A DNA stretch of 64,000 nt from Hyphomonadaceae bacterium (GTDB taxonomy: Bacteria > Pseudomonadota > Alphaproteobacteria > Caulobacterales > Aquidulcibacteraceae): NCBI GenBank assembly GCA_023384105.1, contig JAHDXR010000018.1, positions 1 through 64,000 on the forward strand. Reading direction: 5' to 3'. Shown piece after piece: positions 1-50,564 of this stretch. Position 1 is the first letter of the stretch. Each line of letters opens with the position of its first letter. The notes below the pieces were generated by a model, which worked only from the letters and a program-made list of their open reading frames with translations, searched no databases and had not been told where the DNA came from. The position numbers and the translations under genes were made by a program.

Positions 1-22
1 ATTCGAGTCCCGTGGGAATCCC

Positions 23-46
23 TCCGATTCAATCAGATCGGATTTT
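23..46 (+). terminator. Possible terminator at window edge
   Basis: A 6-bp stem (TCCGAT at 23-28, ATCGGA at 37-42) with an 8-nt loop is followed by TTTT. It could end a rightward transcript that starts before the window. It lies just beyond the stop codon of the leftward four-helix-bundle gene but has no T run on that strand. Confidence 0.35.
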
Positions 47-49
47 GCT

Positions 50-418
50 CTAGCTGCTGGGGGTCTTTAGACGCTCGTGAAGACGAGTGAGCATTCGCCC
101 TATCTGCGCTGCGGATTCGAGCAGGGGCTCAACGTTCTTTGCGGCGAGAAAATCGGCCTGTTGCGCCAGCAGCAGCAATGTCTCGAGTTCAGCCGTCGAG
201 CCACGCGCGATGCTGACGAAATGGGCGTACTCTTTGCGCGTTGCGCGCGTGTGCCCTTCCGCAATGTTGGCAGGAATTGAAATGGCCGCACGCACCATTT
301 GCGAGGTGAGACGATATTCTTCCTTCTTGGGCATATGTTCGGCGACTCGATAGACCGCGCCCGTGAGTTCCATGGCTTTGGACCATACCTCAAGCTGCCG
401 ATAGCTGGTGATCTTCAT
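50..418 (-). CDS. Four-helix-bundle protein (23S rRNA intervening-sequence/Avd-like family)
   Basis: Encodes 122 residues that are almost wholly helical. It has the family pattern: an N-terminal YRQLEVWSKAMEL segment, then SQMVRAAISIPANIAEG near residues 50-67, then a long ELETLLLLAQQADFL helix. Relatives include proteins encoded in 23S rRNA intervening sequences and the accessory protein Avd of diversity-generating retroelements; the cellular role is unknown. The ATG at 418 is chosen because the family begins at MKITSYRQ. The 33 bp between this start and the nadC stop is entirely a G-rich array with a 7-bp period, which also supplies the only Shine-Dalgarno-like sequence. No reverse transcriptase or template repeat is in the window. 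Confidence 0.85.
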   Translation of the reverse strand: MKITSYRQLEVWSKAMELTGAVYRVAEHMPKKEEYRLTSQMVRAAISIPANIAEGHTRATRKEYAHFVSIARGSTAELETLLLLAQQADFLAAKNVEPLLESAAQIGRMLTRLHERLKTPSS

Positions 419-452
419 ACGTCCCGACCCCCAATCCCCAGACCCCAGCACC
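418..452. repeat. Degenerate heptamer array upstream of four-helix-bundle gene
   Basis: Read on the minus strand the units are GGTGCTG, GGGTCTG, GGGATTG and GGGGTCG, then GGACGTA running into the start codon, in strict 7-bp register. The array fills the space between the nadC stop codon and the ATG at 418. The G runs (about 423-446) satisfy a G-quadruplex pattern on the minus strand. Similar arrays lie at 50459-50564, 56104-56138 and 57402-57483. Confidence 0.75.
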
Positions 453-1336
453 TAAATCGCGTCCAGCCCTACATCCAGCGAACGCGCCGAGTGCGTCAGC
501 GCGCCGATGCTGATCACGTCGACGCCCGTCTCCGCCACGGCGAAGACGTTCTCGATGGTGACGCCGCCGGAGGCTTCGAGCAGCGTCTGGCCTTTCGCCA
601 GCTTCACCGCCGTACGCATGTCGGCCTGGCTGAAATTGTCCAGCAGGATCGCGCTCGGCGCATGCGGCAGCGCCTGCTTGAGCTGATCGAGCGTGTCGAC
701 CTCGATCTCGATGCAGGTGAGGTGGCCGGCCGCGGCGCGCGCGCGCTGCATGGCGTTGGCGATGGAGCCGGCGGCGGCGATGTGGTTGTCCTTGATCAGC
801 ATCGCATCGTCGAGACCGTAGCGGTGCGCGCCGCCGCCGCCGAGCTTCACCGCGCGCTTCTCCAGCGCGCGCAGGCCGGGCGTAGTCTTGCGCGTGGAGG
901 CGATGATCACGCCCATGCCCTCGACCGCATCGACATAGACGCGCGTGAGCGTGGCGACGCCGGAGAGCCGGCCGATGAAATTGAGCATCGTCCGCTCCGC
1001 CATCAGCACCGAACGCGCCGCGCCCTCGAGCGTCATGATTGCGTCGCCGGCTTTGACCCGCGCGCCGTCAGGGGCGTTCACCGTGAACTGGATTTCGGGG
1101 TCGATCAGCCAGGCGGCGAGGGTGGCCGCGTCGAGCCCGGCCACGACGCCGGCCTCTCGCGCGCGCAGCGCCCACCGGCCCTCCGTTGCGGGATCGATCA
1201 GCGCGTCGGTGGTCACGTCGCCCGCCGCGCCCAGATCTTCGGCGAGCGCGAGCTTAACGATCGGTTCGAGCACGATGTCAGGCAGCGGCGGCAGCGTCGT
1301 TCCGCGTGAGGAAGCTGCGGTGCGGTTCTGCGGCAT
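452..1336 (-). CDS. nadC: Quinolinate phosphoribosyltransferase (carboxylating)
   Basis: Converts quinolinate and PRPP to nicotinate mononucleotide, the last step of de novo NAD synthesis from aspartate. The 294-residue product has the family core STRKTTPGLRALEKRAVKLG followed by GGGAHRYGLDDAMLIKDNH, which carry active-site Lys, Arg and His residues, and a C-terminal ALTHSARSLDVGLD. The ATG at 1336 lies 59 bp inside the end of nadB. A later GTG at 1273 would avoid the overlap but would remove the PLPDIVLEP segment that is usual at the N terminus, so the overlapping start is preferred. It is the third gene of a leftward nadA-nadB-nadC operon. Confidence 0.95.
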   Translation of the reverse strand: MPQNRTAASSRGTTLPPLPDIVLEPIVKLALAEDLGAAGDVTTDALIDPATEGRWALRAREAGVVAGLDAATLAAWLIDPEIQFTVNAPDGARVKAGDAIMTLEGAARSVLMAERTMLNFIGRLSGVATLTRVYVDAVEGMGVIIASTRKTTPGLRALEKRAVKLGGGGAHRYGLDDAMLIKDNHIAAAGSIANAMQRARAAAGHLTCIEIEVDTLDQLKQALPHAPSAILLDNFSQADMRTAVKLAKGQTLLEASGGVTIENVFAVAETGVDVISIGALTHSARSLDVGLDAI

Positions 1337-2744
1337 TGGGGAAATCGCTCCTGAAATGCGCGCCGCGGCTTTCCTTGCGGGCGAGCGCGGCGGTGAGGAT
1401 GAAGCGCGCGGCGACGAGCGGGTGCGCCGGCCCGTGAGCATCGCAGAGCGCGCACACCCGGTCGAGCGCCTGGGTTAAACCCGCCGCGTCGCGGACGACG
1501 CTGGCATGGGCCTGCATCAGCCGGCGCAGTTCGGCGCGCGGCGCATCCGGCAGCGCCGGCGGCGCCGGCTCGTGTTCCAGCGGCAGCGGCGCGGGCGTAT
1601 CGGCGTCGCGCAGGCGCTCGGCGATGCGGTGCGCGAACACGACCGCTTCGAGCAGCGAATTGGAGGCGAGCCGGTTGGCGCCGTGCGCGCCGGTGGAGGC
1701 GCATTCGCCCACCGCCCACAGGCCGTCGAGCGTGGTGCGGCCCCATATGTCGGTGACGACGCCGCCCATGTGATAGTGCGCAGCGGGCGCGACCGGGATC
1801 GGCTGTTCGCGCGGATCGAGGCCGGCGCTCATGCAGGCGGCGAACACGGTCGGGAAGTGGTGCGGAAACGCTGCGCCCACGGCCTTGCGCGCATCGAGGA
1901 AAGCACCGCGGCCGGCGGCGCGTTCGAGATGGATCGCGCGCGCCACGACGTCGCGCGGCGCGAGGTCGGCGACGAACGACTCGCCCCTGGCGTTGACCAG
2001 ATGCGCGCCCTCGCCGCGCAGCGCCTCGGTGGCGAGCGGGGCGGGGTCGCGGCCGATGTCGATCGCGGTGGGGTGAAACTGCATGAACTCGGGATCGGCG
2101 ATCAGCGCGCCCGCGCGCGCGGCCATGGCGAACCCCTGGCCCTGCGCTTCGACCGGATTGGTAGTGACGGCGTAGAGCCCGCCGGCGCCGCCGGTGGCGA
2201 GGATGGTCTCGCCCGCCTCGAAGCGCGCGCCGCTTTCGCACGCCGCGCCGCAAATGCGTCCGCTGGCGTCGCGCAGCAGCACGCGCGCGCGCTCGTTCTC
2301 GACGATGCGGACGTGCGGCGCGCTGCGCGCGGCGGCGATCAGCGCGTCCATGATCGCCTTGCCGGCGAGGTCGCCGGATACGCGCACGACGCGCGGGCGC
2401 GAGTGCGCGGCTTCCAGGCTCTGCGCCAGCTCGCCCTCCGGCGTGCGGTCGAACGGCACGCCCAGCGTCACGAGGTCGACCACCCGCGCCGGGCCTTCCT
2501 TGGCGAGCAGCCGCGCCACGGCGGGGTCGACCAGCCCGGCGCCCGCGGCGATCGTATCCTGCGCGTGCAGTTCGGGGTTGTCTTCCGGTGCGAGCGCCGC
2601 GGCGAGCCCGCCCTGCGCCCAGGCCGACGACGCGGCCTGGCCGAGCGGCGCCTGGCTCAGCACGGTGACGCGCCGCGGCGCGAGCTTCAGCGCGAGAAAG
2701 AGGCCAGCAAGCCCCGCGCCGACGATGAGGATGCCGTCACGCAT
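1278..2744 (-). CDS. nadB: L-aspartate oxidase
   Basis: FAD flavoprotein that oxidises L-aspartate to iminoaspartate, the substrate of NadA. At 488 residues it has usual length. The N terminus is a dinucleotide-binding fold (ILIVGAGLAGLFLALKL), followed by SSAWAQGGLAAAL, the fumarate-reductase-type active-site region FMQFHPTAID near residue 240, and the C-terminal FAD loop GECASTGAHGANRLASNSLL. It sits between nadA and nadC on the same strand, overlaps nadC by 59 bp and is separated from nadA by 147 bp holding a palindromic repeat. Co-transcription with nadA is likely but not proven across that gap. Confidence 0.96.
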   Translation of the reverse strand: MRDGILIVGAGLAGLFLALKLAPRRVTVLSQAPLGQAASSAWAQGGLAAALAPEDNPELHAQDTIAAGAGLVDPAVARLLAKEGPARVVDLVTLGVPFDRTPEGELAQSLEAAHSRPRVVRVSGDLAGKAIMDALIAAARSAPHVRIVENERARVLLRDASGRICGAACESGARFEAGETILATGGAGGLYAVTTNPVEAQGQGFAMAARAGALIADPEFMQFHPTAIDIGRDPAPLATEALRGEGAHLVNARGESFVADLAPRDVVARAIHLERAAGRGAFLDARKAVGAAFPHHFPTVFAACMSAGLDPREQPIPVAPAAHYHMGGVVTDIWGRTTLDGLWAVGECASTGAHGANRLASNSLLEAVVFAHRIAERLRDADTPAPLPLEHEPAPPALPDAPRAELRRLMQAHASVVRDAAGLTQALDRVCALCDAHGPAHPLVAARFILTAALARKESRGAHFRSDFPNAAEPHRSFLTRNDAAAAA

Positions 2745-49079: not shown

Positions 49080-50459
49080 ATGAAATACGACTACGATCTC
49101 TTCGTCATCGGCGCGGGCTCGGGGGGCGTGCGGGCGGCGCGGCTGGCGGCGAAGGCGGGGGCCAGGGTGGCCGTGGCCGAGCAGGTGCAGGTCGGCGGCA
49201 CCTGCGTGCTGCGCGGCTGCGTGCCGAAGAAGCTCCTGCTCTACGGCGCCGAGTTCAGCCAGTCCTTCCGCGACGCCAAGGGCTTCGGCTGGACCGTCGA
49301 TTGGGCCCGCTTCGACTGGCCGACGCTGCGCGAGCGCGTGCAGGCGGAAGTGAACCGGCTCTCCGGCCTCTACATCGCGAATCTCGAAGGCGCCGGCGCC
49401 GAGATCGTCGACGACCGCGCCATCCTCGCAGGCCCGCATCGGGTGCGGCTCACCCGCGAGGGGCGCGAAGTCACCGCGGAGCGCATTCTGATCGCCACGG
49501 GCGGCCACACGTCGCGGCCCGCGGAAACGCCCGGCCAGGAACTCGGCGTCACCTCGACCGATTGCTTCACGCTCGATGAGCTGCCGTCGAGCATCGTCAT
49601 CGCCGGGGGCGGCTTCATCGCGCTCGAATTCGCCAACATCTTCTCCGGCCTCGGCGTGGAGACGACGGTCGTCTATCGCGGCGAACGCATCCTGCGCGGC
49701 TTCGATCACGACATCCGCAAGCACGTGCAGGCCGACATGCAGCGCACCGGCGTCCATGTCGTCTGCGGCTCGACAATCGGCGAGATCGCCCCGCTCGCCG
49801 GCGCGCGCAAGCTGGTGACGCTGTCGAACTCGATGCGGATCGAGACCGACCACGTGCTGTGGGCGATCGGGCGCGAGCCGAACACCGGCGGCATGGGGTT
49901 CGAAGCCGCGGGCGTGCGCCTCACCGCGCGCGGCGCCGTGGCGGTCGACGCCTATTCGCGCTCCAGCGCGCCCTCGGTCTGGGCCATCGGCGACGTCACC
50001 GACCGCATCAATCTGACGCCGGTCGCCATCCGCGAAGCCGTCGCTTTCGTGGAGACCGAATTCCACGGCCGCCCCACCGCGTTCGATCACGTCGACGTCG
50101 CCAGCGCCGTGTTCTCGCGTCCCGCGGTCGGCGCGGTCGGCCTCACCGAGGAGGAGGCGCGCGAGCGGTGCAAGATCCGCGTCTTCCGCACCGTGTTCCG
50201 GCCGATGAAAAACATTCTCGCCGACAACGAGCAGCGCACGCTGATGAAGCTCGTCGTCAACGCCGAGAGCGACCGCGTCATGGGCGTGCACCTCGCCGGG
50301 CCCGAAGCGCCGGAGCTGATCCAGCTCGCCGCCATCGCGGTGAAGGCGGGGCTCACCAAGGCGCAATGGGACGCGACCTGCGCGGTGCACCCCACCGCGG
50401 CCGAAGAACTGGTGCTAATGGGCGAGCCGATCCCGCACGACAACGAAGCGCCGGCTTAG
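49080..50459 (+). CDS. gor: Glutathione-disulfide reductase
   Basis: A 459-residue FAD enzyme that reduces glutathione disulfide with NADPH. It has the FAD site DLFVIGAGSGGVRAARLA, the redox disulfide VGGTCVLRGCVPKKLLLY, the NADPH domain IVIAGGGFIALEFANIFS with following YRGER, and the C-terminal catalytic His in AVHPTAAEELVLMG. WAIGDVTDRINLTPVA is the second FAD signature. Its stop codon TAG is immediately followed by a G-rich heptamer array. Confidence 0.93.
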   Translation: MKYDYDLFVIGAGSGGVRAARLAAKAGARVAVAEQVQVGGTCVLRGCVPKKLLLYGAEFSQSFRDAKGFGWTVDWARFDWPTLRERVQAEVNRLSGLYIANLEGAGAEIVDDRAILAGPHRVRLTREGREVTAERILIATGGHTSRPAETPGQELGVTSTDCFTLDELPSSIVIAGGGFIALEFANIFSGLGVETTVVYRGERILRGFDHDIRKHVQADMQRTGVHVVCGSTIGEIAPLAGARKLVTLSNSMRIETDHVLWAIGREPNTGGMGFEAAGVRLTARGAVAVDAYSRSSAPSVWAIGDVTDRINLTPVAIREAVAFVETEFHGRPTAFDHVDVASAVFSRPAVGAVGLTEEEARERCKIRVFRTVFRPMKNILADNEQRTLMKLVVNAESDRVMGVHLAGPEAPELIQLAAIAVKAGLTKAQWDATCAVHPTAAEELVLMGEPIPHDNEAPA

Positions 50460-50564
50460 GGGCTGGGGATTGGGGATTAGGGGTTAGCGGCGGAGCAAGC
50501 TGCTGAAACGATGCAAACGCGTCAGTGCGGTATTTCCCTAATCCCCAGCCCCCAGCCCCCAGCC
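50459..50564. repeat. Inverted pair of heptamer arrays between gor and parA
   Basis: Plus-strand units GGGGCTG, GGGATTG, GGGATTA and GGGGTTA occupy 50459-50486. Minus-strand units, three GGCTGGG and one GATTAGG, occupy 50537-50564. A spacer of about 50 bp lies between. Both arrays meet the four-G-run rule for G-quadruplexes, on opposite strands. Confidence 0.8.

What the first reader, a model, noticed from the sequence alone, without database searches (positions are those of the whole stretch)
418..452. 7-bp-period array fills the leader of the four-helix-bundle gene
The whole space between the nadC stop and the four-helix-bundle ATG is made of degenerate G-rich heptamers in strict register, and these G runs also have to serve as ribosome-binding site. 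Similar arrays occur at three other loci here, two of them as inverted pairs without a gene. I infer a mobile or spreading unit of heptamer arrays that sometimes carries a four-helix-bundle gene. The nearest known parallel I can name is the heptanucleotide STRR repeats of cyanobacteria.
Basis: partly seen in the sequence, partly recalled or inferred. Interest (0 to 1): 0.72.

Follow-up and report, generated by a model that had tools for sequence, protein, structure and literature searches.

The report
Repeat-flanked gene whose protein reads repeats
A small bacterial gene usually annotated as a "four-helix-bundle" or "S23" protein sits between two mirror-image arrays of seven-letter repeats in many bacteria; the repeat differs from copy to copy and changes together with particular amino acids of the protein, which suggests a widespread selfish DNA element whose protein recognises its own repeats.

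Summary
The leader array is real, and it is one arm of a larger unit. PF05635 (S23/IVP) genes from many bacterial phyla and one archaeon lie between inverted arrays of 7-bp, sometimes 8-bp, units: 168 of 184 loci have a periodic arm; random window pairs of the same loci 43 of 1312 (period 7) and 12 of 1312 (period 8). The heptamer differs between elements but is shared by both arms (90 of 101 with both arms periodic). S23 similarity predicts heptamer similarity at unrelated sites (0 of 2000 permutations). Single residue columns covary with single heptamer bases after correction for phylogeny, best Tyr/Phe with base 6. Arms usually hold 4-5 units; solved homologues are pentamers. Presence is lineage-specific at nadC, nuoC-nuoD and the gene-less pair in the window; at nadC a relative has the element inverted. 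Two 23S rRNA intervening sequences share the anatomy, joining published IVS elements to published heptamer repeats. Binding, RNase III processing in mRNA and transposition are inferred. The pre-registered out-of-clade test of the residue code was small and did not confirm it.

The parts
419..451 (-). Upstream (left) arm: four TGGGGNN heptamers filling the gap between the nadC stop and the S23 start
50..418 (-). S23/IVP four-helix-bundle gene, 122 aa (PF05635, 125.6 bits); predicted fold matches 2gsc, 2rld and DGR Avd
227..229 (-). Codon of Tyr64 (column 62), the residue that covaries with heptamer base 6 (Tyr with G, as in the window heptamer)
50..66 (-). Inverted heptamer-like stretch (GACCCCCAGCAGC) overlapping the 3' end of the gene, not an array by autocorrelation (5 of 14); a four-unit right arm lies on contig C20, about 51-80, outside the window, beside the GNAT-like gene that adjoins nadC in relatives
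452..1441 (-). nadC, host gene on the left side of the insertion site
50457..50487 (+). Left arm of a gene-less inverted heptamer pair; begins in the stop codon of the upstream gene
50535..50564 (-). Right arm of the gene-less pair; no such pair in the stretch printed after the orthologous upstream gene in 27 other genus genomes

Best explanation
The leader is the left arm of an S23/IVS-type genetic element: an array of four or five heptamers, one S23 gene, and the same array inverted. SHOWN: the anatomy, its generality, shared heptamers of the two arms, co-inheritance of protein and heptamer, residue-base covariation within one heptamer class, purifying selection on the protein, lineage-specific occupation of sites, one inversion at the same site, gene-less inverted pairs of the same heptamers, and the same anatomy in two 23S rRNA insertions. 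INFERRED: the S23 protein, a pentamer in its solved homologues, reads its heptamer array in RNA or DNA, plausibly one heptamer per subunit; in a transcript the two arms pair into a stem that RNase III can cut, as shown in print for the Coxiella 23S element, so the element is tolerated behind stop codons inside operons and in rRNA; protein and arms together let the element, and gene-less arm pairs, spread to new sites by an unknown reaction.
For: Association with arrays. Arms match inverted in 89 of 105 own against 274 of 2077 swapped pairings. Heptamer follows the S23 lineage at unrelated sites. Residue-base covariation (pooled hold-out for base 6, put together after the fact: 16 of 22, p 0.0018). 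Arm length peaks at 4-5 units: 62 of 96 up, 90 of 108 down. Patchy presence: 22 of 60 family genomes, 47 of 249 phylum genomes, up to 23 matches in one genome. Inversion at nadC. Gene-less pairs. 23S links. dN/dS 0.06-0.16 in 8 of 12 pairs, dS saturated in the other 4. Fold like S23 and DGR Avd.
Against: No movement was observed, and no target-site duplication or transposase was identified. The window copy has no array directly after its gene (5 of 14) and folds no better than shuffled RNA (z 0.76; 78 of 100 shuffles as good), although L003 does (z -3.89). Heptamer arrays occur in genomes in which no PF05635 gene was found (G039 24 hits, G053 10, G047 5). The residue code was pre-registered: only 10 of 63 array-bearing test elements had the needed register and 4 of 7, 5 of 10, 3 of 5 and 2 of 4 calls were right, no better than permutation. 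In pooled hold-outs only base 6 passes; bases 4, 7 and 2 give p 0.18, 0.42 and 0.60. 16 of 184 loci show no 7- or 8-bp array at the threshold.
Confidence: 0.66

Rival explanations
1. The arrays are binding sites for autoregulation only: the S23 protein controls its own translation or that of the host operon through the heptamer array (as TRAP does with triplets, recalled), and the element spreads by ordinary recombination without a mobility function of its own.
For: The upstream array ends a median of 16 nt before the approximate start codon and residues covary with bases.
Against: The downstream inverted arm, the gene-less inverted pairs and the inversion at the same site are not needed for autoregulation.
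Confidence: 0.2
2. The heptamer pairs are independent mobile or hotspot sequences (a kind of MITE) into which S23 genes hop; the gene is a passenger.
For: Arrays exist in genomes in which no PF05635 gene was found, and 7-bp runs are the commonest 5-11 bp period in the flanks even away from S23 (68 against 1-10).
Against: Heptamer similarity follows S23 similarity across sites and single residue columns follow single bases. Three S23 genes in G000 have three different heptamers.
Confidence: 0.1
3. A transposase elsewhere moves the arm pairs in trans, as RAYT proteins are thought to move REPINs (recalled); S23 is an accessory.
For: Gene-less inverted pairs outnumber gene-bearing elements in G000 (at least 8 against 3).
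Against: No such transposase was searched for, and no fixed terminal sequence common to all elements is seen because the heptamer varies.
Confidence: 0.15
4. The element is a retroelement relative in which the Avd-like protein works with a reverse transcriptase.
For: The predicted fold matches Avd in DGR ribonucleoproteins (8ube, 4dwl).
Against: No RVT_1 match in G000, which carries three S23 elements.
Confidence: 0.04

Closest known systems
S23-coding intervening sequence (IVS) of 23S rRNA, e.g. Coxiella burnetii (PMC4990558: abstract and passages seen)
   Same: S23 ORF inside terminal inverted repeats that form a stem; tandem heptamers (GACAGAT, 2-3 copies varying by strain) just upstream of the S23 start; sporadic distribution; called a selfish genetic element in the abstract. 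Two 23S IVS found here have 7-bp periodic arms.
   Different: Most elements here are not in rRNA, many lie behind stop codons of protein-coding genes; their S23 genes are under purifying selection in the pairs tested, whereas the Coxiella ORF is reported to undergo reductive evolution; gene-less derivatives exist.
Heptameric G-rich repeats of Xanthomonas and Nostoc (PMC4692102: abstract, section 13 and passages read)
   Same: 7-bp period, preference for four units, G-rich strand, 70 and 75 convergent inverted pairs in two Xanthomonas genomes (few in Nostoc), position close to stop codons.
   Different: The terms S23, four helix and intervening do not occur in its main text, and it reports no general association with mobile elements; here the arrays bracket S23 genes and the heptamer varies with the protein.
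STRR heptanucleotide repeats of cyanobacteria (recalled; the full name shows only as a search term with occurrences)
   Same: Tandem heptamers; STRR1 as recalled (CCCCART) is the complement of the window heptamer.
   Different: Membership not tested here.
Avd of diversity-generating retroelements (4dwl, 8ube; PMC10053308 passages)
   Same: Same fold by Foldseek; that paper states structural homology of PF05635 (2GSC) to Avd.
   Different: No reverse transcriptase match in G000; no template or variable repeat was looked for.
REPIN/RAYT elements (PMC3116915, search listing only; otherwise recalled)
   Same: Short inverted pairs, gene-bearing and gene-less forms, dispersed between genes.
   Different: Different protein family; the arms are 7-bp arrays of variable sequence, not one conserved palindrome.

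Membership tests
23S rRNA IVS / S23 element | ORF of the PF05635 family | tested here: met
   125.6 bits, cut-off 33.8
23S rRNA IVS / S23 element | Terminal inverted repeats around the ORF | tested here: met
   Family-wide: 89 of 105. For the window copy only indirectly: left arm 419-451, no array directly after the gene, right arm placed on contig C20 by comparison with relatives, not joined
23S rRNA IVS / S23 element | Located inside a 23S rRNA gene | tested here: not met
   The window copy lies beside nadC. Of the six loci given to Rfam L299 (G245) and L311 (G330) lie in LSU rRNA
23S rRNA IVS / S23 element | Excision from the transcript by RNase III | not testable with these tools
   Shown in print for Coxiella
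Xanthomonas/Nostoc type heptamer repeats | Tandem GGGNATC-like heptamers, dispersed, often inverted pairs | tested here: met
   Window arrays and the G-run arrays of G000
DGR (Avd) | Reverse transcriptase in the genome | tested here: not met
   No PF00078 match in G000
REPIN/RAYT | Y1 (REP-associated) transposase gene | not tested
   No search made
TRAP-like ring binding of tandem repeats (way of working) | Oligomeric ring, one repeat bound per subunit | not testable with these tools
   Solved homologues have five chains and 2GSC is titled an assembly of five four-helix bundles (reference seen); arms peak at 4-5 units

The most novel reading that the evidence does not exclude
S23/IVP proteins are ring-shaped, sequence-specific nucleic-acid readers in which each subunit reads one heptamer through single-residue contacts (Tyr/Phe for base 6, Glu and others for base 4, Lys/Arg for base 7), and protein plus inverted arrays form a mobile-element class without transposase or reverse transcriptase. 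In this class protein and repeat co-diversify; it is found in many bacterial phyla and an archaeon, and it is the source of both the 23S intervening sequences and many bacterial heptamer repeats.
Probability: 0.33. Interest if true: 0.93.

Novelty: new variant of a known kind. Interest (0 to 1): 0.83.

Why it matters
It would give a function to a widespread small protein family of unknown role (PF05635), explain heptamer repeats that have been described without a cause, and generalise the 23S intervening sequence to a large family of elements. If the residue-base covariation holds, it is a compact natural recognition code in a 120-residue protein that can be tested by one amino-acid swap and one base swap.

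Tried and rejected
RNA folding of the window copy gave no excess stability, so I do not claim a stem for this copy; it has no array directly after the gene. A strand-orientation count of neighbouring genes was discarded: on the nuoC-S23-nuoD loci among the named set, where the answer is known, the ORF heuristic called only 16 of 34 co-directional. G-quadruplex formation as a common cause was rejected because many heptamers lack G runs (e.g. AGTAGTG, AATAGCG). Two Calothrix plasmids with similar S23 regions show the same gene order over a longer segment, so they were not used as element copies; their DNA was not aligned. The two identical S23 genes of G245 proved to be in duplicated rRNA operons. 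A Brucella/Ochrobactrum group with 8-bp units was counted under period 8, not dropped. In one search I left out four split or partial relatives (L051-L054) and two loci with short flanks, 184 of 189 loci were kept (one without a hit, four with under 85 aa). Searches used only loci with array score 12 or more (129 of 184; the window copy, score 11, is not among them), and of these 86 with a unique A-N-T-N-G-N-S register, 70 after removal of sequences over 85% identical. The counts "27/27" and "34/34" in that note come from a list of the 14 commonest combinations only. The hold-outs and their pooling (one duplicate dropped) were not pre-registered; one element (L510) is 89% identical to a training sequence. 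The phage collection gave no S23 match. Paper searches that found no link of S23 genes with heptamers beyond Coxiella, judged from listings and the passages cited: in a library without most subscription journals.

Full report
WHAT IS THERE. On the minus strand of window 419-451 the nadC stop is followed by GTGC TGGGGTC TGGGGAT TGGGGGT CGGGACG T and then the ATG of a 122-residue PF05635 protein. The loose pattern of three such heptamers gives 49 partly overlapping hits in the 3.67-Mb genome, the reversed control 1. The window also holds one gene-less inverted pair at 50457-50564.

THE ARRAY IS ONE ARM OF A UNIT. The genome has three PF05635 genes. Each has a heptamer array upstream, with three different heptamers: TGGGGNY at nadC, GGCGAAT between nuoC and nuoD, GGTGTCR in L003. 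L003 has three inverted heptamers right after its stop and L002 a shorter inverted match. For the nadC copy there is no array directly after the gene (5 of 14), only one inverted heptamer-like stretch; a four-unit right arm lies on another contig. The same anatomy appears in relatives and in 80 named loci whose titles span many phyla, including a Methanosarcinales archaeon. At least one arm is periodic (>=11/14, period 7) in 71 of 79 named loci, 25 of 28 relatives, 40 of 49 phylum loci and 18 of 28 viral-collection loci. No S23 match exists in the phage record collection.

STATISTICS. In the 80 named loci, 7-bp periodicity of at least 17/21 occurs upstream in 41 and downstream in 46, against 5 of 863 and 10 of 920 control ORFs of the same loci; period 8 gives 7 and 5 of 80; the other periods from 3 to 13 give none. 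In 184 S23 loci (of 189 scanned), a looser threshold finds period 7 or 8 in at least one arm of 168; random window pairs from the same loci give 43 of 1312 for period 7 and 12 for period 8. Where both arms are periodic they share the heptamer to within one mismatch in 90 of 101, against 1387 of 10100 swapped pairings. In a later set of 130 loci from the 29 genomes behind 30 of the named loci, 124 S23 genes were read (32 of them over 85% identical to earlier ones); 96 have a periodic arm, and the arms agree in 40 of 54. Arms have four or five units in 62 of 96 upstream and 90 of 108 downstream cases.

PROTEIN AND HEPTAMER GO TOGETHER. Among 129 elements, S23 identity correlates with heptamer distance at -0.370 for 7345 pairs at different sites, and no permutation of 2000 was as low. 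The 63 non-redundant array-bearing elements of the later set give -0.121, 0 of 1000 permutations as low. At the nuoC-nuoD site, 43 loci were collected; the 40 with score 12 or more have ten heptamers and all 40 fit A-R-T-N-G-B-S; of the three with score 11 one fits. Over all elements 18 of 60 distinct heptamers, making up 79 of 129 elements, fit A-R-T-N-G-N-S, against 4.6 (sd 1.9) for shuffled letters.

A POSSIBLE CODE. In 70 non-redundant elements with that kind of register (A-N-T-N-G-N-S), association stratified by overall identity singles out one protein column per variable base (which prints the 14 commonest residue-base combinations). Base 6: column 62, Tyr with G in 35 of 36, Phe with T or C in 31 of 32. 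Base 4: column 103, Glu with A in the 27 Glu cases listed, other residues mostly with G or C. Base 7: column 118, Lys or Arg with G in the 34 cases listed. Base 2: column 54, weaker. Simulating the bases along a tree built without these columns, the best column reached the observed value in 0, 1 and 0 of 400 simulations for bases 6, 4 and 7, but in 27 of 400 for base 2. For base 6 columns 54 and 62 are nearly tied in that analysis. Trained only on relatives below 50% identity, column 62 predicts base 6 (G against pyrimidine) with 96% accuracy, first of 118 columns (majority class 53%); columns 103 and 118 rank first below 60% identity (70% and 84%) and lose power below 50%. Before seeing new data I wrote the predictions down. 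The planned cyanobacterial set could not be had; in the set used instead only 10 of 63 array-bearing elements had the register, and the results, 4 of 7, 5 of 10, 3 of 5 and 2 of 4, do not confirm them. Further hold-outs, not pre-registered, gave 6 of 9, 4 of 8, 2 of 3, 2 of 6 and 6 of 7, 4 of 7, 3 of 5, 1 of 5. Pooled after the fact over 28 elements, base 6 is right in 16 of 22 (p 0.0018); base 4 in 13 of 24, base 7 in 8 of 13 and base 2 in 5 of 15, not better than permutation. Without any register, the four columns together explain heptamer distance in the later set better than all but 17 of 1000 random column sets. I regard base 6 as likely, bases 4 and 7 as supported within one class, base 2 as open.

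STRUCTURE. The window protein is predicted with pLDDT 94.9 as helices 10-26, 31-56, 61-87 and 93-118. The best fold matches are 2gsc and 2rld (S23 family, five chains each), then Avd in DGR ribonucleoproteins. The covarying columns fall at residues 56, 64, 105 and 120: the end of helix 2, the start of helix 3, helix 4, and just beyond its end. In an up-down bundle three of them would lie at one pole; this is inference from topology.

SITES. At nadC, the G000 left arm follows the nadC stop; contig C20 begins with a heptamer right arm beside a GNAT-like gene (name from its sequence by eye) that in relatives adjoins nadC. G044 has the same element there in the opposite orientation (S23 76.4% identical, flanks about 80%). 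Of 29 genus genomes printed for 130 nt after nadC only these two carry the S23 element, and G042 has a gene-less heptamer-like array. At nuoC-nuoD, of 27 genus genomes printed likewise, G000 is filled and G044 keeps a single right arm; I see no array in the others. The gene-less pair at window 50457-50564 is not seen in the stretches printed for 27 other genomes. Eight of 25 G000 stretches tested hold gene-less inverted pairs with at least 75% ungapped match. PF05635 is patchy: 22 of 60 family genomes, 47 of 249 phylum genomes; split and stop-containing copies occur. S23 genes are under purifying selection, dN/dS 0.06-0.16 in 8 of 12 pairs, dS saturated in 4.

LINK TO KNOWN ELEMENTS. In G245 an S23 gene lies in a 439-nt segment within a complete LSU rRNA match, in the place I recall as helix 45, with 7-bp periodic arms (up 10, down 12 of 14); G330 has a similar, stop-containing copy (up 10, down 14 of 14). 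The Coxiella IVS is reported to have tandem heptamers before its S23 ORF, a 28-bp terminal stem and RNase III excision (PMC4990558, passages). Heptamer repeats of Xanthomonas and Nostoc, with four-unit preference and, in Xanthomonas, inverted pairs, are reported without S23 (PMC4692102). I found no paper joining the two in the searches made.

AGAINST. Arrays occur in genomes in which no S23 gene was found, no movement was seen, the window stem is weak, and the code did not pass its one pre-registered test. RT-based mobility is unlikely in G000.

VERDICT. A widespread element family that unites S23 intervening sequences with heptamer repeats; very likely as anatomy, likely as a protein-repeat pair, open as to how it moves.

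Noticed in passing
L230, L235, L172, L180, L181: Other dispersed hairpins (GTCATTCCGGG..CCCGGAATGAC and CTTCGACAAGCTCAG types) occur inside spacers of gene-less pairs and at nadC ends of relatives (by eye).
   Followed up: no
G566, G581, G585 (genomes of L065/L139, L117, L123): Three genomes titled Acidobacteria or Terriglobia carry 19-23 PF05635 matches each, a good place to look for recent spread.
   Followed up: partly
L111, L124, L129, L135: Some Ochrobactrum/Brucella-group and Paramesorhizobium elements have 8-bp units (GGGGAGTA-like) in place of 7 (by eye).
   Followed up: partly
window 1-49 and L301 1-51: Unidentified sequence lies between the S23 stop and the right arm at the assembly gap, probably an insertion inside the element.
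   Followed up: no
L320, L334: S23 elements ending beside sequences that look like tRNA genes (by eye).
   Followed up: no
nuoC-nuoD junction, 43 loci: One operon junction holds the element in 43 of 184 loci; the reason is unknown.
   Followed up: partly
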